Assembly: GCF_900112605.1 (NCBI RefSeq)
Contig: NZ_FOMJ01000013.1
Span: 1-36,444, forward strand
Length of the DNA stretch: 36,444 bases
Direction of reading: 5' to 3'
Source of the DNA: Thiohalospira halophila DSM 15071
GTDB lineage: Bacteria > Pseudomonadota > Gammaproteobacteria > Thiohalospirales > Thiohalospiraceae
Made by a program: the position numbers and the translations under genes. Of this stretch, positions 25,093 through 36,444 are shown in pieces (the first letter of the stretch is position 1; each line of letters opens with the position of its first letter). The notes under the pieces were generated by a model that had not been told where the DNA came from, made no database searches, and saw nothing but the letters and a program-made list of their open reading frames with translations.

Positions 25093-25938
25093 ATGGCTCA
25101 GGTTATCAACACCAATGTGATGTCGCTGAACGCCCAGCGGAATCTCAACTCGACCAACAATCAGATGTCCCAGGCGGTGGAGCGGCTCTCCTCCGGCCTG
25201 CGGATCAACAGCGCCGCGGACGACGCCGCTGGTCTCGCCATCTCTGAGCGCTTCAGCGGCCAGATCAACGGCATGAACCAGGCGGTCCGCAACGCCAACG
25301 ACGCGGTTTCGCTGGTTCAGACGGCCGAAGGCGCACTGGACGAGATCAGTAACATGTCCCAGCGGATTCGTGAGCTGGCGGTGCAGTCGGCCAACGACAC
25401 CAACGCTGCGGATGACCGCGATGCGCTCGACGATGAGGCGCAGCAGTTGGTCGCGGAGATCGATCGGATTGCGAGCGAGACGGAGTTCAACGGGGAGAAC
25501 ATTCTCGATGGTTCCAACGGCACCATGACCTTCCAGATCGGGGCCAATGAGGGCCAGACCCTGGGAGTCACCACCCCCAATGCGACGAAGGGTGCGCTTG
25601 CGACCGGAGCCGATATTAGCTTCGCGGATATCGATATCTCGTCCACTCCGAGCCAAGCTTCTATCGGGTCTGTCATTTCCACAATGGATCAGGTCATTGA
25701 TGATGTCAGTGGCATCCGCGCGGAGCTGGGTGCGACCCAGAATCGACTGGAGTCAACCATCTCCAACCTCGAAGTGGGCGTGGAAAACATGAGTTCAGCG
25801 CGGTCGCAGATCAGGGACGCTGACTTCGCCAAGGAGTCCTCGGAGCTGACGCGGACCCAGGTCCTGCAGCAGGCGGGAACCTCGATGCTGGCCCAGGCCA
25901 ACCAGCTCCCGCAGAACGCCCTGTCACTGCTCCAGTAA
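25093..25938 (+). CDS. fliC: Flagellin FliC, short form
   Basis: This is a 281-residue flagellin. The conserved D0/D1 N-terminus ([20 protein letters not shown], then [19 protein letters not shown] and the TLR5-type [12 protein letters not shown]) occupies about residues 1-140. The C-terminal D1/D0 (about 185-281) ends [19 protein letters not shown]. Only about 40 residues lie between them, so the outer D2/D3 domains are missing. The filament is made of D0/D1 cores, with few outer surfaces apart from possible Ser/Thr glycosylation sites. A GAGGAGAC ribosome site precedes the ATG. Confidence 0.97.
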
Positions 25939-29434: not shown

Positions 29435-30307
29435 ATGAAGGGGATTGTCCTCGCCGGCGGTACCGGAACTCGACTTCACCCTCTAACCTATGGGGTGAGC
29501 AAGCAGCTCATGCCCGTTTATGATAAACCGATGGTTTATTATCCCCTCTCGGTTCTTATGCTCGCTGGTATTCGGGAAATACTGCTTATCACTACGCCCC
29601 GAGACCAAGAAGCTTTCCGCACCCTGTTGGGAGACGGTTCCCAATGGGGAATTGCCATCGAATACGCCGTTCAGGATGAACCCAGAGGGTTGGCTGATGC
29701 CTTCCGGGTCGGGAAAAGTTTTATCAATGGGCGGCCAGTGAGCCTGATATTGGGTGACAACATATTTTACGGGCAAGGCCTGAGTAGCCTCCTCAAGAAG
29801 GCCGCCTCACGAAAAAAAGGGGCAACCGTATTCGGGTACTATGTGAGTGACCCGGAGAACTATGGAGTTGTTGCGTACGATCAGGACTGGAATATCGTAG
29901 ACATTCAGGAAAAGCCGCCGCACCCACCCTCTCATTACGCGATAACTGGACTGTACTTTTATGACGGCCAAGTCGCGGAGGTTGCAGCCGAGCTCGAGCC
30001 TTCACACCGCGGAGAGCTTGAGATTACGGATGTTAACCGCGCGTACTTGGAAGAAGGTATGCTCAATGTAGAGCCTCTGGGCCGTGGCACGGCTTGGCTG
30101 GATACCGGGACCCACGGTGCGCTTCTGGATGCCGCTAATTTTATTAAAGTAGTGGAGGACCGGCAGGGTTTGAAAATTGCCTGCCTCGAGGAAATTGCCT
30201 ACCGAATGGGTTTCATCTCGACAGAGGCTTTAGAGTGGCAGGCGGCATCTTTGGCAAAGAGTGGGTACGGGCAATACCTTTTGAAGGTTTTGCAGGAGGC
30301 TCGATGA
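29435..30307 (+). CDS. rmlA: Glucose-1-phosphate thymidylyltransferase RmlA
   Basis: This 290-residue enzyme makes dTDP-glucose from glucose-1-phosphate and dTTP, the first step towards dTDP-rhamnose and dTDP-amino sugars. Signature elements are [18 protein letters not shown] at the start, [36 protein letters not shown] and the C-terminal [15 protein letters not shown] at 29435 follows AGGAG; upstream in-frame codons overlap fliT and are rejected. The following rmlB, rmlC and rmlD genes are missing in the window. The codons are less GC-rich than in fliT, which suggests acquisition. Confidence 0.93.
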
Positions 30308-30642
30308 GGGCGTTGGCCATGAGTAATTAAAGGATTATCAGTGCCAGCTTAACCGGATTAACCCTCGCCCCGCAAGCTCAATTTCCAAGTGCAGCATCTC
30401 CCCCGCCGAATGGGCCCACTTTTGCAGCTAAAAATTGATTCTGAGGTGTTCTAGAATGCCCCATATACGTACCTTAGCCTGTACTTTTTTATTGTTTCTT
30501 TCTCGGTGAATATTTAGTGGAATGGTTTGAACAATATAGTAGCGGTCATGGTAAATCGTCGAGTACTAGCGAATATGCTTTTTCTTTTCGGCTGCTGCAT
30601 TGGCATTGACCTTTGATGATGCAACGCGAGGACTGTCAAAGT
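30308..30642. other. 335-base AT-rich gap between rmlA and the epimerase gene
   Basis: No gene was found on either strand. Only a very short open stretch (about eight codons, MRALAMSN) follows rmlA directly. The DNA from about 30460 is rich in T runs. TATAGT near 30534 could be a -10 element, but no good -35 lies 16-18 bases before it. It may be the scar of a lost gene or the promoter region for the next genes. Confidence 0.4.
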
Positions 30643-31668
30643 ATGGAAAAAGTTCTGGTGACAGGCGGAGGCGGTTATATCGGGTGTGTCTTGGTTCCTC
30701 AGCTGTTGGAATGTGGATACGCTGTAAGGATCTTGGATCGGTTCTTTTTTGGCCGGGACCTAATCGCGAATCATGAACATATAGAGATTATTCGAGAAGA
30801 TAGCCGCCGAATTCGCGCGGACCATTTGGCGGGTATCGACCATGTTATCGATCTGGTGGCCCTTTCCAACGACCCAAGTGGCGAACTCTTCGAACAATCG
30901 ACTTGGGAAATCAACCATGGTTCTCGCGTGCATACGGCCAATCTTGCCAAGCAATTGGGAATAAAACGCTATATTTTCCCCAGCTCGTGCAGCATCTATG
31001 GTTTTCAAGAGGCAGGTGTGGTGGCTGATGAGAATAGCCCTATCAACCCACTCACTACATACGCAAAGGCAAATCGCAAAGCGGAAGAAGGCATTCTTCC
31101 ATTGGCTGATTCCGAGTTCTGCGCCGTCGCTATGCGGCAAGCGACTGTTTACGGGTACTCTCCGCGCATGCGATTTGACCTAGCCGTCAATGGCATGACC
31201 TATGGGGCGTTAATAACCGGCAAGCTGCCTCTCCTGCGCGATGGAACGCAATGGCGGCCTATGGTGCATGTCCAAGATACTGCCCGGGCTCTGGCATTCA
31301 TGCTTAGCGCTGACGTTGAAAGAATTAATGGCGAAATCTTTAATGTTGGTTCCCCTGAAAATAGTTATCAGCTCGAGTCGTTGGCAAAGAAGGTCGCCAA
31401 GACCGTTCCCAGGGATGTGGAAATCGAATGGTATGGCGATCCCGACCATCGTTCCTATCGTGTGGCTTTCGATAAAATTGAATCTCTCGGTTTCAAAGCC
31501 CGGTATGTAGCCGAAGACGGGGTACGAGAGGTAACGCGTGCCTTGGAAGAGGGACGTACGGACAAGACTAGTAAAACCCTTACGTTGAAGTGGTACCAGG
31601 AGTTGGTGAAGTGGCACGCGCTCATTCAACAGACTGCCATGCATGGCGGTATAGTGGACCTCCCTTGA
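30643..31668 (+). CDS. NAD-dependent sugar epimerase/dehydratase (extended SDR)
   Basis: This is a 341-residue extended short-chain dehydrogenase acting on a nucleotide sugar. The N-terminal Rossmann motif is TGGGGYIG (residues 7-14), followed by the acidic LDRFFFG that selects NAD and PSSCSIYG (residues 113-120). The active-site Tyr140 lies in TTYAKANRK; the usual lysine four residues later is Asn144, with Lys142 and Arg145 close by, so the catalytic lysine is shifted or replaced. QATVYGYSPRMRFD and RPMVHVQDTARA form the sugar-binding part. ATG at 30643 is chosen because the Rossmann motif begins there and GAGGA lies upstream. The substrate is unknown. It lies 47 bases before a DegT aminotransferase gene. 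Confidence 0.8.
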   Translation: MEKVLVTGGGGYIGCVLVPQLLECGYAVRILDRFFFGRDLIANHEHIEIIREDSRRIRADHLAGIDHVIDLVALSNDPSGELFEQSTWEINHGSRVHTANLAKQLGIKRYIFPSSCSIYGFQEAGVVADENSPINPLTTYAKANRKAEEGILPLADSEFCAVAMRQATVYGYSPRMRFDLAVNGMTYGALITGKLPLLRDGTQWRPMVHVQDTARALAFMLSADVERINGEIFNVGSPENSYQLESLAKKVAKTVPRDVEIEWYGDPDHRSYRVAFDKIESLGFKARYVAEDGVREVTRALEEGRTDKTSKTLTLKWYQELVKWHALIQQTAMHGGIVDLP

Positions 31669-31715: not shown

Positions 31716-32807
31716 ATGACCACTGTTGGCCGGCCCTACCTCCCCAACCGGAAAAAGCTTGAAGGTTATCTCGACCAGGTATACGAATCCCAGTGGTTGA
31801 CCAATAATGGCCCGCTTGTTCGCGAATTGGAGGAGCGCCTGGGAGATTACTTGGGGGTGGATAACCTCCTCTTGGTAGCGAATGGAACCCTTGCTCTGGA
31901 GGTGGCTCTTCGAACGTTTGGTATCTCAGGCGAAGCGGTTTCGACGCCGTTTACCTTTGTCGCTACCAGTGCAGCTATCCGCAACGAAGGCCTAGGCGTT
32001 CGTTACGCGGATATTGACCCGGAAACCCTAAATCTTGACCCGGCTAAGGTGGAGTCCGCCTGCGGCCCAGATACGCAAGCGCTTGTTCCCGTCCATGTCT
32101 ATGGCAATCCCTGCGATGTCGAGGGCTTTGATGAGTTGGCACGGCGGAAGGGACTAAAGACGGTTTATGACGCTGCTCATGCTTTGGGTGTGAATTACGA
32201 CGGCCACAGCGTGCTGCGTTGGGGAGATGCCGCGACGCTGAGCCTCCATGCGACAAAGCTCTTCCATACTGGCGAGGGCGGGGCCGTGGTCTTCCGCCGA
32301 GCGGAAGACCACGAACGGGCTCGCCGGTTGATCAACTTCGGCTTGGAGGCAGTGGATGGCTCCATCCCCGATGTAGGTATGAATGCCAAGATGAGTGAAT
32401 TCCACGCCGCAGTGGGTCTTGCAATGCTGGACGATCTCCCGGCGATCTTGGAACACCGGAAGGCAGTGGGAGAGGCATACGAACGAGAGCTTGACGACTG
32501 GGTCAGCTTTCCTGCTTGGTCAAAAAGGGGCACACGGAATGGGGCGTACGCCCCAATCCTTTTGGAGACTCCCTCGGTGAGGGACAAGGTTAAAGCAGTG
32601 CTACAAAGCGAAGACGTAATAGCACGTTCCTATTTTTCACCGAGCCTGGATGAGACTGCAGCTTATCGAGCGGGTAACTTTTTCCCGGAATCCCAAGCCA
32701 AAGCGCTGCGTACGTTGTGCCTCCCTATTAACACCGGAATGGATTTTAATGACGTGAAGAAGATATCGCTTTGTATAAAGCGAGCGATAAACCAAGAACG
32801 AGAATGA
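31716..32807 (+). CDS. DegT/DnrJ/EryC1/StrS aminotransferase
   Basis: This is a 363-residue PLP-dependent aminotransferase predicted to convert a keto-nucleotide sugar to an amino sugar. Features are SQWLTNNGPLVRELEERL near the start, ANGTLALEVAL, STPFTFVATSAA, YDAAHALG (Asp152 for the cofactor ring nitrogen) and the PLP lysine Lys181 in SLHATKLFHTGEGG. It is of normal family length. It probably acts on the product of the neighbouring SDR enzyme, though the sugar cannot be named. The C-terminal NTGMDFNDVKKISLCIKRAI is normal for the family. Confidence 0.9.
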   Translation: MTTVGRPYLPNRKKLEGYLDQVYESQWLTNNGPLVRELEERLGDYLGVDNLLLVANGTLALEVALRTFGISGEAVSTPFTFVATSAAIRNEGLGVRYADIDPETLNLDPAKVESACGPDTQALVPVHVYGNPCDVEGFDELARRKGLKTVYDAAHALGVNYDGHSVLRWGDAATLSLHATKLFHTGEGGAVVFRRAEDHERARRLINFGLEAVDGSIPDVGMNAKMSEFHAAVGLAMLDDLPAILEHRKAVGEAYERELDDWVSFPAWSKRGTRNGAYAPILLETPSVRDKVKAVLQSEDVIARSYFSPSLDETAAYRAGNFFPESQAKALRTLCLPINTGMDFNDVKKISLCIKRAINQERE

Positions 32808-32909: not shown

Positions 32910-33599
32910 ATGAAGCTAGCAATAATGCAGCCGTACTTTTTTCCTTATTTGGGTTATTTTCAGTTGGCGCACTCTGTTGATTCTTTTGTGGTCTATGACG
33001 ATGTTCATTTCAGCAAAGGAGGTTGGGTTAATAGGAATTATATATTATCGCAGGCTGGCAGAAGTCTTCTAACGCTTAACCTGAGCGGTGCCAGCTCGAA
33101 TCGCTTGATAAACGAAATTGCCGTTGGGGATAACAAAGAAAAGATATTGAAAACGGTTCGGCAGCAATATTCAAAGGCTCCCTATTTTGAATTGGCGTAT
33201 CCCGTAATTGAAGATATTTTTTCTATTTATGAGCCCAATCTTGCAAGTTTCTTAGGGTACGGAGTGCAACGAATTTGCCATTACTTGGGCATACGTGATA
33301 CCTGGTATTGGTCTTCCGAGATTGCTAAGGATGGTTCTTTGAAGGGCCAAGATAAAGTAATCGATATTTGCAAAAAGCTGGGCGCAGAACACTACGTCAA
33401 TCTCCCGGGGGGGAGGAATCTTTATGGGCGGGAACGGTTCGAGGATGAAGGTATGGAGTTATCATTTATAGAGCCAGGAAATTATGTCTATAAACAATAT
33501 TCACGGAGCTTTGTTCCCAATCTGTCAATTATTGATGTAATAATGTTCAATGATCCCAAGGATTTTCCTTTAATGCTTTCGAGTTATTCCATTGTTTGA
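32910..33599 (+). CDS. WbqC-like family protein
   Basis: This is a 229-residue protein of the WbqC-like family (PF08889), recognised from MKLAIMQPYFFPYLGYFQLA, then VDSFVVYDDVHFSKGGWVNR and LPGGRNLYGRERF. Family members are found in O-antigen, capsule and amino-sugar gene clusters next to DegT aminotransferases, but the reaction is not firmly established. A role in modifying the amino sugar is plausible. It is the most AT-rich gene of the window, with many T runs, and has GAGGA before the ATG. Its stop overlaps the next start by eight bases. Confidence 0.85.
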   Translation: MKLAIMQPYFFPYLGYFQLAHSVDSFVVYDDVHFSKGGWVNRNYILSQAGRSLLTLNLSGASSNRLINEIAVGDNKEKILKTVRQQYSKAPYFELAYPVIEDIFSIYEPNLASFLGYGVQRICHYLGIRDTWYWSSEIAKDGSLKGQDKVIDICKKLGAEHYVNLPGGRNLYGRERFEDEGMELSFIEPGNYVYKQYSRSFVPNLSIIDVIMFNDPKDFPLMLSSYSIV

Positions 33600-34575
33600 T
33601 CAAACTGAAAAAGAAGCTATCGGGGGCTACCTAGAATTGGACCTGCCCTCAGGAGTTGGTACCTTAAATGAAAGAGCGCTTCTCTACCAGAGTGGCAGAG
33701 CTGCTTTTCGCGCGCTCTTGCAAACCGTTAGGCCTTCCCGGGTCTTCGTGCCTCGTTTGATCTGCAATTCAATGATTTCCCCTTTACAAGAGGAGCGTAT
33801 TGAGTATTTGTGGTATGATCTGGATGATCAATTGATGCCGCGAGAAAAGGTAGTTCTCGAGGAAGGTGAAATCATGCTTTATGTCAATTACTTTGGAGTT
33901 TGTCAAAACCAGGTTAAGGAGATTTTGGAAAACTTTCGGCCGGAGCAGGTGGTTTTTGATTTCTCTCAATCCCTCTTTGAACGGCCCGTGACTGAGGCCT
34001 TGGCGACTATCTACTCCCCGCGGAAATTCCTTGGGGTTCCTGATGGTGGGATGTTGGTGACATCCTCGGAGGTGGATCCTCCAATAGAGGTGGATGATGG
34101 TTCCCTAGGCCGGATGACGCATCTTCTTAAACGTCTGTATTCGACTCCCGAGGAGGGCTATTACGATTACGTCCAAGCCGAAAAGGGTTTGGAGGATAGC
34201 ACCCCCCGGAGAATGTCTGGCCTGACGCGTCGGCTCCTTGACTCAATAGATATTAACAGTATACGAGAAAAGAGGTTGGTGAACTTTTCTCATCTCGAAG
34301 AAAGGCTAGGTCCACGGAATCGGTTTCGAGCGGATGACAGTCAGAGTGAGTCCCCACTGTGCTATCCTTTAGCCGTCGATGTTCCGGGTTTACGAGAGCA
34401 TCTTCTGGCGCATCGTATTTTTGTTCCCACCTATTGGCGAGACTCCGAGGAGCGGGTTGAGTCAGCCTTTGGGAAAAAAATGATTGACGGCTTGCTTCCG
34501 CTACCTGTGGATCAGCGCTACGGGGAGAAAGACATGGATGCTTTAGTTTCCTTAATTGACGAGTTCCTCGAATGA
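33592..34575 (+). CDS. Diverged DegT-fold aminotransferase-like protein
   Basis: This is a 327-residue protein of aminotransferase fold type I. LLYQSGRAAFRALLQTVRPS aligns with the N-terminal part of DegT proteins and IYSPRKFLGVPDGGML holds the presumed PLP lysine, Lys145. The Asp-x-Ala-His motif of true DegT enzymes reads DFSQSL here (Asp123). It is shorter than the usual 360-400 residues. It may be an aminotransferase with another acceptor or a non-catalytic relative. The start is TTG at 33592, eight bases inside the WbqC gene; no in-frame ATG lies near. The strong overlap suggests translational coupling. It overlaps the sulfotransferase gene by four bases. Confidence 0.65.
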   Translation: MFDQTEKEAIGGYLELDLPSGVGTLNERALLYQSGRAAFRALLQTVRPSRVFVPRLICNSMISPLQEERIEYLWYDLDDQLMPREKVVLEEGEIMLYVNYFGVCQNQVKEILENFRPEQVVFDFSQSLFERPVTEALATIYSPRKFLGVPDGGMLVTSSEVDPPIEVDDGSLGRMTHLLKRLYSTPEEGYYDYVQAEKGLEDSTPRRMSGLTRRLLDSIDINSIREKRLVNFSHLEERLGPRNRFRADDSQSESPLCYPLAVDVPGLREHLLAHRIFVPTYWRDSEERVESAFGKKMIDGLLPLPVDQRYGEKDMDALVSLIDEFLE

Positions 34576-35564
34576 GCAAAGGTGATATGAGTCTGGGAAA
34601 GAGGAGCGAGGAGTTCGCTCGCAACCACCAACTAGAAAACCTTCTGGTGGATTTAAACAGCAACCTCTGGCCTGTTGAAGAGAACCTGCTCGGGAAAAGT
34701 GGGGGCAGCCAACCTTACCCAAACATTCTTATTATGGGGCCGCATCGTAGTGGGTCGACCCTATTCATGCAGTGGCTTGCAAATACTGGGCTCGTGGCGT
34801 ATCCGACCAACTTGTTGTCACGTTTCTACCGAGCGCCAATTCTTGGGGCCAAGATACAAATGCTTTTGACCGAGCCCCGGTTTGATTACCGAAACGAGCT
34901 TGGTGAGTTCGCACAACAGGCCAAGTACGAGTCTGTTAACGGCAAGACTCAAGGCGTTTTAGCTCCCAACGAGTTCTGGTATTTTTGGCGGCGATTTTTG
35001 CCCGAGCCGGATAGGGATGTCTGGACTGAACCGGAACTGTGGGAAGGGTTCGATATCGATACGCTGCAACGTGAACTAGGCGGATTAATGACGGTTTTCG
35101 ATAAACCCTTTGCCTCCAAGGCTATGCTGTTCAACTATAATATACCCTTCATGAATGAGATTCTGGACAAAGTTATTTTTGTCCAAATTAAGCGGGATGA
35201 AGTAGCCAATGCACAGTCAGCCTTAGAGGCCCGGCGACGGCAGTGCGGCTCTGAGGAAGCGTGGTACTCGTTTCGTGTTCCCGAATATGAAGCGTTAAAA
35301 GACTTGGGCCCCGCAGAGCAAGTAATTGGCCATTTGCGGTCGATTAATTTGGCAGTAGATACTGGGCTTGAAGAAGTGCCAGAAGAAAGGAAGATCGTGG
35401 TTCAATACGAAGATTTTTGCGAAGATCCCGAAAAATATTTTAGGCAACTCACGAAGAAGATGAAGCAGCAAGGCATGGATGGCGTTTTTGAATATAAGGG
35501 ACCAAGAGCTTTTCGGCCATCGAATGAGCGCGAGATTGATCCTAGGATTTTAAACGCGATTTAA
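34572..35564 (+). CDS. Sulfotransferase family protein
   Basis: This 330-residue protein is predicted to move a sulfo group from PAPS to a glycan or other acceptor. The 5'-phosphosulfate-binding loop is MGPHRSGSTLF (residues 55-65). The strand and helix KVIFVQIKRDEVANAQSAL form the 3'-phosphate site with Arg and Ser at the usual positions, and VVQYEDFCEDPEKYFRQL is a typical C-terminal element. The ATG at 34572 overlaps the previous stop (ATGA); ATG at 34587 is possible. The last gene of the sugar group, it stops four bases from IS481 remnant DNA, so its natural C-terminus may be cut. PAPS synthesis genes are not in the window. Confidence 0.85.
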   Translation: MSKGDMSLGKRSEEFARNHQLENLLVDLNSNLWPVEENLLGKSGGSQPYPNILIMGPHRSGSTLFMQWLANTGLVAYPTNLLSRFYRAPILGAKIQMLLTEPRFDYRNELGEFAQQAKYESVNGKTQGVLAPNEFWYFWRRFLPEPDRDVWTEPELWEGFDIDTLQRELGGLMTVFDKPFASKAMLFNYNIPFMNEILDKVIFVQIKRDEVANAQSALEARRRQCGSEEAWYSFRVPEYEALKDLGPAEQVIGHLRSINLAVDTGLEEVPEERKIVVQYEDFCEDPEKYFRQLTKKMKQQGMDGVFEYKGPRAFRPSNEREIDPRILNAI

Positions 35565-35677
35565 ATGTCAAGACCCGACTGATCGTAGTCCTGCTTCCGG
35601 AACAGTTCCGGGTGCGCGGCCTGCCAGTCCTTGAGCTTCCGGACCGGCGTCCGATGGCCGAGGGCGGGCCTACCTCC
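35561..35677 (-). pseudogene. IS481-type transposase, C-terminal remnant
   Basis: On the minus strand the codons before a TAA at 35561-35563 read RPALGHRTPVRKLKDWQAAH, continuing PELFRKQDYDQSGLDI. This is the usual C-terminus of IS481-family transposases (G-x-R/K-T-P, W, H-P-x-L-F, Y-D-x-x-G-x-D). The bases TGTCAAGACC at 35566-35575 look like the terminal repeat of such an element. No catalytic domain precedes it; the frame breaks near 35677. The stop codon overlaps the stop of the sulfotransferase on the other strand. Confidence 0.75.
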
Positions 35678-35769
35678 ATCACTTCGGCAGCTTCTAATGC
35701 TGCCCGGTCGGCTCCTTGCCGACCGCAACCGCATTGCTGCGGCACACCCATCTAGCCTGACAGTGAGGG

Positions 35770-36000
35770 CGGGAGCTGGCCCGAGAGTTCGGCGTCTCCG
35801 AGGACACCATTCGCCGCTGGCGTAAGCGCGCTACCACCGAAGACGGCTCGCACACCGCCCACCGGCTGCGCACGACCCTGACACCGGAGCAGGAGGCGGT
35901 GGTGGTGGCCCTGCGCCGGACCCTGTGGCTCTCCCTGGAGGACATGCTCGCCGTCACCCGGGAGTTCCTCAACGAGAACGCCTCCCGCTCCCTGGCCCTC
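35770..36000 (+). pseudogene. IS481-type transposase, N-terminal remnant
   Basis: The plus-strand frame from 35770 reads RELAREFGVSEDTIRRWRKR, then DGSHTAHRLRTTLTPEQEAV and ALRRTLWLSLEDMLAVTREF. This is the helix-turn-helix and linker region of IS481-type transposases. The natural start codon is missing (the upstream bases carry stops in frame) and the similarity stops at NENASRSL near 36000, where sequence of another IS begins. It is a doubly truncated fragment, opposite in direction to the C-terminal remnant. Confidence 0.75.
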
Positions 36001-36063
36001 AGACTAGTTGTCGCCTCGTGAGGTAGGATGTTCTTAGAAAAGCCGGGGCGATAGGAGTGACGA

Positions 36064-36120
36064 GTGGCACGATATTCCCGGGAGCGGCGTGAGGCTGTAG
36101 TGGCCAAGATGTTGCCGCCC
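36064..36120 (+). pseudogene. Truncated IS3-type orfA, first 19 codons
   Basis: From a GTG at 36064 the frame reads VARYSRERREAVVAKMLPP, then breaks at a run of seven C bases where the 18-bp inverted repeat begins. It aligns with the start of the second orfA at 36199 (VKYSDEHKEAVVKKLQPP). The upstream bases 36001-36063 also match the upstream region of that second copy (CAGACTAGTTG versus CAGGCTAGTTG), so this is the broken left end of a related element. Confidence 0.7.
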
Positions 36121-36128
36121 CCCCTCAC

Positions 36129-36444
36129 TGTCAGGCTAGTTGGAACCTCATCCGATGCTAGGGTGTTATAACCAACCGGGGGCGAAGAGAGGGTTCCTGT
36201 GAAGTACTCCGACGAACACAAGGAGGCGGTGGTGAAGAAGCTCCAGCCGCCGTACAACCGGACCGTGGCCCAGCTAGCCGAAGAAGAGGGGATCTCGACC
36301 GGCACGCTGTATAACTGGCGCCGGAAGGCCCGGGCCCAGGGCCGGCTGTTGCCGGACAACAGTCCGGAGCCCGAGGGCTGGAGCTCCCGGGACAAGTTCA
36401 ATGCGGTGCTGGAGACCTCGGCCCTGTCCGAGACGGAGGTGGCC
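36129..36444 (+). mobile_element. IS3-type insertion sequence, left part (continues past window)
   Basis: The left end probably starts at TGTCAGGCTAG (36129-36139), part of a perfect inverted repeat with 35752-35769, and the transposase orfA starts 70 bases inside, as usual for such elements. The rest is outside the window, so completeness is unknown. Confidence 0.6.
36199..36444 (+). CDS. IS3-type transposase orfA, N-terminal part cut by window edge
   Basis: Eighty-two codons are visible from a GTG start, with AGAGGG six bases upstream. The protein begins VKYSDEHKEAVVKKLQPPYN. A helix-turn-helix of the HTH_Tnp_1 type follows: VAQLAEEEGISTGTLYNWRR and KARAQGRLL. It then reads SSRDKFNAVLETSALSETEVA to the edge. 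The DNA-binding subunit of an IS3-family transposase is expected. The frame is intact as far as seen. Confidence 0.75.
   Translation, partial: MKYSDEHKEAVVKKLQPPYNRTVAQLAEEEGISTGTLYNWRRKARAQGRLLPDNSPEPEGWSSRDKFNAVLETSALSETEVA

What the first reader, a model, noticed from the sequence alone, without database searches (positions are those of the whole stretch)
33592..34575. Short DegT-fold protein with altered cofactor motif in a coupled trio
The protein keeps the lysine context (SPRKFLGVPDGG) but lacks the Asp-x-Ala-His motif, is about 40 residues short and starts at a TTG inside the WbqC gene. The WbqC/DegT-like/sulfotransferase trio is translationally overlapped at both joints, which suggests that the products act together. 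It could be a new aminotransferase subclass or a scaffold for the WbqC-like protein.
Basis: partly seen in the sequence, partly recalled or inferred. Interest (0 to 1): 0.55.

Follow-up and report, generated by a model that had tools for sequence, protein, structure and literature searches.

The report
Aminotransferase-like enzyme in sugar-decorating operon
The gene encodes a member of a widespread, unnamed family of vitamin-B6-type enzymes that sits between an enzyme putting an amine on a sugar, a probable amino-acid-attaching enzyme and a capping enzyme, so it probably helps bacteria decorate surface sugars with modified amino acids.

Summary
The ORF, its TTG start and both gene overlaps are real. 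The 'altered cofactor motif' is mostly a misreading. The PLP aspartate is present (D123, in DFSQ) and so is the PLP lysine (K145). His is replaced by Gln, the rule in this family (82 of 86). The protein has no Pfam or NCBIfam family, and none of 65 aligned members matches the DegT models. A confident AlphaFold model (pLDDT 95) still has the DegT sugar-aminotransferase fold (Z 23.7). Profile comparison aligns D123 and K145 with the DegT cofactor residues.

Homologues form a conserved cassette: DegT aminotransferase – [WbqC or ATP-grasp ligase] – this protein – [acetyltransferase, ATP-grasp or sulfotransferase]. WbqC and ATP-grasp never share the slot (0 of 86) and swap at least 8 times on the tree. 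The WbqC model resembles BshC and class I aminoacyl-tRNA synthetases. E. coli O121, with N-acetylglycyl-Qui4N, has aminotransferase–WbqC–acetyltransferase without this gene.

Best reading: an active PLP enzyme that changes the amino-acid arm which WbqC puts on the amino sugar. The reaction is inferred, not shown.

The parts
29435..30307 (+). RmlA/RfbA, glucose-1-phosphate thymidylyltransferase (dTDP-sugar supply)
   Evidence: NCBIfam TIGR01207 470.7 bits, cut-off 360.65
30613..31668 (+). SDR-family nucleotide-sugar epimerase/dehydratase, exact reaction unknown
   Evidence: Pfam Epimerase 116 bits; below every equivalog cut-off shown
31716..32807 (+). Genuine DegT/DnrJ/EryC1/StrS aminotransferase (AT), DesI/VioA-like
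   Evidence: PF01041 271 bits; best NCBIfam TIGR04427 DesI 281.9 bits, below its cut-off of 650
32910..33599 (+). WbqC family protein; predicted HUP/class I synthetase-like fold, proposed amino-acid:amino-sugar ligase
   Evidence: PF08889 224.4 bits; model pLDDT 95.4; BshC 4wbd Z 14.6, 222 aligned, rmsd 3.4
33592..34575 (+). DL: the finding itself, a divergent DegT-fold PLP protein (D123, K145), TTG start inside wbqC
34572..35564 (+). Sulfotransferase (capping slot)
   Evidence: PF13469 38.8 bits, cut-off 27; 4-nt overlap with DL

Best explanation
DL is an active PLP-dependent enzyme of a family related to DegT sugar aminotransferases. It works in a cassette that hangs a modified amino acid on a nucleotide-linked amino sugar. 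Proposed order: (1) the DegT aminotransferase puts an amine on the sugar, probably C4 of a dTDP-6-deoxyhexose (by homology); (2) WbqC, a ligase of the BshC/class I synthetase fold, or in other species an ATP-grasp ligase, attaches an amino acid to that amine (fold plus elimination in E. coli O121); (3) DL forms a Schiff base with the free alpha-amine of the attached amino acid and changes it, for example by epimerisation, side-chain exchange or transamination (inferred); (4) an acetyltransferase, second ATP-grasp ligase or, here, a sulfotransferase caps the product (by homology). In this genome the product probably decorates flagellin, since the operon lies beside flagellar genes (recognised by eye). 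Shown by computation: fold, conserved Asp/Lys, cassette and slot swapping. Inferred: every substrate and the reaction.
For: Asp 86/86, and Asp+Lys 12/12 in members not chosen by the Lys pattern. DegT fold Z 23.7, 272 aligned, rmsd 2.9. Cassette counts. WbqC and ATP-grasp exclude each other (0 of 56 WbqC loci against 17 of 30, Fisher p 3e-10 without correction for relatedness) and swap at least 8 times around DL. The ATP-grasp proteins carry the L-amino-acid-ligase domain LAL_C2 (above cut-off in L018, and L026). WbqC fold: BshC Z 14.6, class I LysRS Z 12.3; BshC presumably adds Cys to an amino sugar (PMC4360819 passages). O121: AT-WbqC-GNAT, no DL in 19.2 kb, and Qui4N carrying N-acetylglycyl (PMC3210612 passages). 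DL-type domains also sit beside or fused to FemAB-type proteins (L136, L004, L008, L070). L032 and L026 show no ring oxidase or keto-isomerase in the ORFs scanned, so a second ring amination has no visible keto source. A Lys-less DL domain fused to a glycosyltransferase (L041, L052) suggests that the fold binds the sugar product.
Against: No activity, substrate or structure is known. DL stands alone in three Sporolactobacillus genomes without any WbqC and away from WbqC in three Pseudomonas. 15 of 86 loci have no AT within 6 kb (some are contig ends). Foldseek itself rates WbqC-BshC weakly (E 0.077, TM 0.39). No dTDP-glucose 4,6-dehydratase reaches the cut-off in the window's genome, so the sugar is uncertain. 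DegT ancestry fits a sugar-ring aminotransferase equally well.
Confidence: 0.42

Rival explanations
1. DL is a second sugar-ring aminotransferase: AT and DL make a diamino sugar, WbqC or ATP-grasp acylates one amine and the acetyltransferase or sulfotransferase the other.
For: Ancestry and fold of sugar aminotransferases; two acylation-type genes in many cassettes.
Against: A ring ketone would be needed. In L032 and L026 no oxidoreductase of the Gfo/Idh type or keto-isomerase hits Pfam among the scanned ORFs (one L032 and one L026 ORF have no Pfam hit). FemAB- and ligase-type neighbours point to amino-acid chemistry.
Confidence: 0.25
2. DL acts on a free amino acid, making or racemising the one that WbqC or ATP-grasp then attaches.
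For: Fits a PLP enzyme next to an amino-acid ligase. An E. coli plasmid cluster pairs AT, GNAT and ATP-grasp with a gene annotated as ACC deaminase/D-cysteine desulfhydrase, another PLP enzyme by annotation.
Against: DegT ancestry and the glycosyltransferase-fused DL domains suggest that the fold binds sugar nucleotides.
Confidence: 0.17
3. DL is a catalytically dead scaffold for WbqC.
For: Close coupling with WbqC; Lys-less DL domains do exist.
Against: Asp and Lys conserved; WbqC replaced by an unrelated ATP-grasp; WbqC occurs without DL in E. coli O121, Bernardetia and Rhizobium.
Confidence: 0.06

Closest known systems
DegT/DnrJ/EryC1/StrS sugar aminotransferases (ArnB, PglE, DesV, WecE)
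   Same: Fold (ArnB 8sng Z 23.7, 272 aligned, rmsd 2.9; the listed rows are mostly of this group), PLP Asp and Lys, collinear profile alignment.
   Different: No Pfam hit (0 of 65). Shorter, with a conserved GG[YF]xELE start. Phosphate-loop NGT replaced by S[AG]R, Lys context SPRKFFGVPDGG, conserved R36, R144, R228, W282, D307 and R309. 13-19% identity to the solved structures listed.
E. coli O121 (S. dysenteriae 7-like) AT-WbqC-GNAT gene set
   Same: Same AT, WbqC and GNAT order; Qui4N with an N-acetylglycyl group.
   Different: No DL gene in the 19.2 kb read.
Mycothiol/bacillithiol ligation (MshC/BshC, with MshD acetyltransferase)
   Same: Logic of amino sugar + amino acid ligase + acetyltransferase (gene roles listed in PMC4360819); the WbqC model is most like BshC.
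   Different: Low-molecular thiol, not a surface sugar; no DL-like PLP step.
ATP-grasp L-amino-acid ligases (LAL_C2)
   Same: Occupy the WbqC slot next to DL.
   Different: Unrelated fold to WbqC by family; absent from this window.

Membership tests
DegT/DnrJ/EryC1/StrS family (Pfam PF01041) | Match to the Pfam/NCBIfam models | tested here: not met
   0 families for P0001; 0 of 65 members hit any DegT model at E 0.01. Distant DL-like proteins L004 and L136 do pass the PF01041 cut-off
DegT/DnrJ/EryC1/StrS family (Pfam PF01041) | PLP Asp and Schiff-base Lys in register | tested here: met
   D123 and K145 aligned with the DegT Asp and Lys; 12 of 12 unbiased members
DegT/DnrJ/EryC1/StrS family (Pfam PF01041) | Fold-type I aminotransferase fold | tested here: met
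   Model pLDDT 95; Z 23.7, 272 aligned, rmsd 2.9 to ArnB
DegT/DnrJ/EryC1/StrS family (Pfam PF01041) | Transamination of a keto sugar nucleotide | not testable with these tools
   needs enzymology
WbqC family (PF08889), upstream gene | Pfam match over cut-off | tested here: met
   224.4 bits, cut-off 21.3
BshC / class I synthetase-like ligase, for WbqC | Shared fold | tested here: met
   BshC Z 14.6, 222 of 229 aligned, rmsd 3.4; class I LysRS Z 12.3, 175 aligned, rmsd 2.8; Foldseek E only 0.077
BshC / class I synthetase-like ligase, for WbqC | HIGH-type nucleotide-binding motif | tested here: inconclusive
   Y13-L-G-Y16 of the nearly invariant MQPYxFPYxGY sits where HIGH would be; the HIGH consensus is recalled and no superposition was read
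BshC / class I synthetase-like ligase, for WbqC | ATP-dependent amino acid ligation | not testable with these tools
   inferred by elimination in O121 only
Catalytically dead DegT-fold scaffold | Loss of the Schiff-base Lys | tested here: not met
   K145 present; lost only in the GT-fused L041 and L052 domains

The most novel reading that the evidence does not exclude
DL founds a new PLP enzyme family that works on an amino acid already bound to a nucleotide sugar, and WbqC is the class I synthetase-like ligase that puts it there: a mycothiol-like chemistry used across several bacterial phyla to diversify flagellin, O-antigen and capsule sugars, with WbqC and ATP-grasp ligases as interchangeable loaders.
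Probability: 0.33. Interest if true: 0.8.

Novelty: new variant of a known kind. Interest (0 to 1): 0.6.

Why it matters
DL is a common protein family without a name or model: at least 577 relatives in one genome collection, none of 65 tested known to Pfam or NCBIfam as DegT. Linking it to an amino-acid loading step gives a testable role to it and to WbqC, which a 2017 paper calls functionally uncharacterized (PMC5532660 passage). If right, gene content could predict which bacterial surface sugars carry amino acids, such as the N-acetylglycyl-Qui4N of E. coli O121, and would offer PLP chemistry on an amide-bound amino acid, of which I know no example in sugar pathways (recalled, not searched).

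Tried and rejected
Lost cofactor motif: rejected, Asp and Lys are conserved. WbqC-only scaffold: rejected as above. Direct homology by single sequence: no Pfam, NCBIfam or PDB hit, and profile hmmsearch against PDB gives only E 1, so family profiles and a model were needed. hhalign with a single DegT template gave 3% probability; with 75-row profiles 97.5%. An earlier profile run (98.4%) included the intermediates L004 and L012 on the DegT side and is not relied on. Viral contigs: 52 stretches matched, none a relative. E. coli with DL genes as DNA queries: no match. Proteus O-antigen paper PMC5560731 (passages) and Plesiomonas paper PMC6467956 (no hit) gave no matching structure. Shewanella sfm cluster (PMC3765264 passages) has an ATP-grasp gene but no DL in the passages read. 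PDB sequence search with WbqC: nothing for the single sequence, and no convincing hit with the profile. In the E. coli O121 record only 19.2 kb were read, and its last gene is cut. VIA lists for DL are filled by one superfamily; other fold-type I families are not excluded.

Literature on DL or WbqC function: 'WbqC' alone gave 12 papers, 5 of which I opened or saw as about bacteria (passages read: PMC5532660, PMC9650423, PMC7848895). A search for DegT, ATP-grasp, GNAT, glycan and aminoacyl gave 2 unrelated papers. Subscription journals and preprints are not held, so 'not in print' is not claimed.

Full report
WHAT IS THERE. The finding is an ORF of 327 codons at 33592-34575 on the + strand, called DL below. 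Its TTG start lies 8 nt inside wbqC, and no other start codon precedes the conserved IGGY segment (sequence). Relatives L013 and L014 start at a TTG with the same 8-nt overlap. DL ends in a 4-nt ATGA overlap with a sulfotransferase. Upstream are rmlA, an SDR gene, a genuine DegT aminotransferase (AT, PF01041 271 bits) and wbqC (PF08889 224 bits). The ORFs before rmlA look like flagellar genes, including a flagellin-like ORF at 25093 (recognised by eye, not tested). G+C falls from 0.63 for the window to 0.41 in wbqC and 0.49 in DL.

IDENTITY. DL matches nothing in Pfam, only a below-cut-off chance hit in NCBIfam, and nothing in PDB. In the window's class, 25 of 369 genomes match the family profile at E 1e-5, but only 6 of 369, the window's own included, score over 200 bits; the other 19 are distant relatives. 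None of 65 aligned members hits a DegT model in Pfam or NCBIfam.

COFACTOR RESIDUES. In 86 family members D123 is invariant; the residue that is His in D-x-A-H is Gln in 82 and His in 4. The scan pattern required the lysine, so its invariance there is partly by construction. In 12 members found by other routes D123, R144 and K145 are all present (12 of 12). Profile-profile comparison of 75 DL with 75 DegT sequences from the same loci gave 97.5% and E 5.8e-12 over 301 columns, with D123 and K145 on the DegT Asp and Lys; the reversed control gave 0.3%. The AlphaFold model (pLDDT 95, pTM 0.92) matches DegT sugar aminotransferases in Foldseek's top 50 and by VIA-align: ArnB 8sng Z 23.7, 272 aligned, rmsd 2.9. 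Foldseek's own superpositions have rmsd of 8-11 angstrom, so the two domains may be set differently (inference).

NATURAL KNOCK-OUT COPIES. L041 and L052 each carry, besides an intact DL, a second DL domain fused behind a family 2 glycosyltransferase. In both fused copies R36, C58, N99, Y100, R144, K145, R228 and W282 are replaced, while D123, G152, M208, S209, P305, D307 and R309 remain. These joint losses mark a likely active-site set and suggest that the fold binds the sugar product even when dead (inference).

THE CASSETTE. Of 86 loci, WbqC lies within 6 kb in 56, directly upstream on the same strand in 41 (18 of these with a 4-nt overlap), an ATP-grasp gene directly upstream in 17, both in 0, neither in 13; an AT lies within 6 kb in 71. 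Fisher's p for exclusion is 3e-10, not corrected for relatedness. Downstream, 28 have a GNAT acetyltransferase, 8 an ATP-grasp, 7 a sulfotransferase and 7 another ATP-grasp type; 36 have something else. On a quick tree of 87 DL sequences the WbqC/ATP-grasp state changes at least 8 times and the downstream state at least 9 times; 24 of 84 inner branches are weak. The window's DL groups with L013, L014 and L015 (support 99), all with WbqC upstream and a sulfotransferase downstream. Two further genomes, G487 and G751, show the same order.

LIGASE SLOT. The ATP-grasp proteins hit LAL_C2, the C-terminal domain of L-amino-acid ligases; L018 and L026 pass its cut-off, L058 and L073 do not. The WbqC model (pLDDT 95.4) is most like BshC (Z 14.6, 222 of 229 residues, rmsd 3.4), then class I lysyl-tRNA synthetase (Z 12.3, 175 aligned, rmsd 2.8), tyrosyl-tRNA synthetases (about 8-9) and pantothenate synthetases (about 7). 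Foldseek alone rates the BshC match weakly (E 0.077). BshC is the putative cysteine ligase of bacillithiol, and the mycothiol pathway lists a Cys ligase and an acetyltransferase (PMC4360819 passages). Four ATP-grasp genomes (L018, L026, L032, L064) have no WbqC anywhere; five Bacteroidales ATP-grasp genomes (L058, L067, L071, L073, L085) do have one elsewhere.

A CLUSTER WITH A KNOWN SUGAR. E. coli O121 carries rfbB-rfbA-AT-WbqC-GNAT, then the flippase, and no DL in the 19.2 kb read. A review states that Qui4N has been found with an N-acetylglycyl group, citing the O121 structure (PMC3210612 passages). AT would make the amine and GNAT the acetyl group, which leaves WbqC for the glycyl step. 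This is elimination, not proof; genes elsewhere could act. In DL cassettes DL stands exactly between these last two genes, so an added change to the amino acid arm is the simplest reading.

DL AND AMINO-ACID CHEMISTRY ELSEWHERE. A distant DL-type domain is fused to a FemAB/Acetyltransf_6 domain in L136, and FemAB- or Acetyltransf_6-type genes lie by DL or DL-like genes in L004, L008 and L070 (L006 only below cut-off). FemAB proteins transfer amino acids from tRNA in cell-wall synthesis (recalled). In L032 and L026 the cluster has RmlB- and RmlA-type genes, AT, ATP-grasp, DL, GNAT, flippase and glycosyltransferases, without an oxidoreductase or keto-isomerase of the kinds needed for a second ring amination among the ORFs scanned; one ORF in each gives no Pfam hit.

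AGAINST. DL is solitary in three Pseudomonas loci, whose genomes have WbqC elsewhere, and in three Sporolactobacillus genomes without WbqC. WbqC occurs without DL in O121, Bernardetia and Rhizobium. The window's genome shows no RmlB over the cut-off. No step of the reaction is shown; the aminoacyl-arm reading is a preference over a ring-amination or free-amino-acid role, not a demonstration.

VERDICT. A real, widespread, unnamed PLP-type family in a conserved amino-acid-sugar cassette; new variant of a known kind.

Noticed in passing
window 32910-33599 and PF08889 in general: The WbqC model resembles BshC and class I aminoacyl-tRNA synthetases over nearly its whole length, which would give this uncharacterised family a ligase role.
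   Followed up: partly
L041:12010-14094 and L052:11066-13441: Family 2 glycosyltransferases with a C-terminal DL domain that has lost the PLP lysine and other conserved residues.
   Followed up: partly
L136:1345-3399: DL/DegT-type domain with a lysine, fused to a FemAB/Acetyltransf_6 domain.
   Followed up: partly
G000 (whole genome of the window): rmlA is present, but no dTDP-glucose 4,6-dehydratase reaches the NCBIfam cut-off, so the sugar made here is unclear.
   Followed up: partly
L099 and L120 (G710): The DL frame is split into two ORFs and WbqC is reduced to an 80-residue ORF, while the acetyltransferase is intact; relatives in the same genus have whole copies.
   Followed up: no
window 32910-36444: G+C drops to 0.41-0.49 across wbqC, DL and the sulfotransferase, and the last 880 bases read by eye like broken transposase genes: a likely acquired island.
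   Followed up: no
L134 (E. coli plasmid pLAU-OXA3): A sugar cluster pairs a DegT aminotransferase, GNAT and ATP-grasp with a gene annotated as ACC deaminase/D-cysteine desulfhydrase, perhaps a parallel solution.
   Followed up: no
L070:8198-9001: A PhyH-type dioxygenase directly upstream of DL in Pedobacter; similar ORFs by eye in L005 and L044. Possibly hydroxylates the same arm.
   Followed up: no
L059, L083, L088: Solitary DL genes in Pseudomonas, with WbqC elsewhere in each genome.
   Followed up: partly
Dickeya zeae WH1 (PMC9650423 passage): A WbqC and DegT gene pair inserted between fliA and fliC, consistent with flagellin glycosylation.
   Followed up: no
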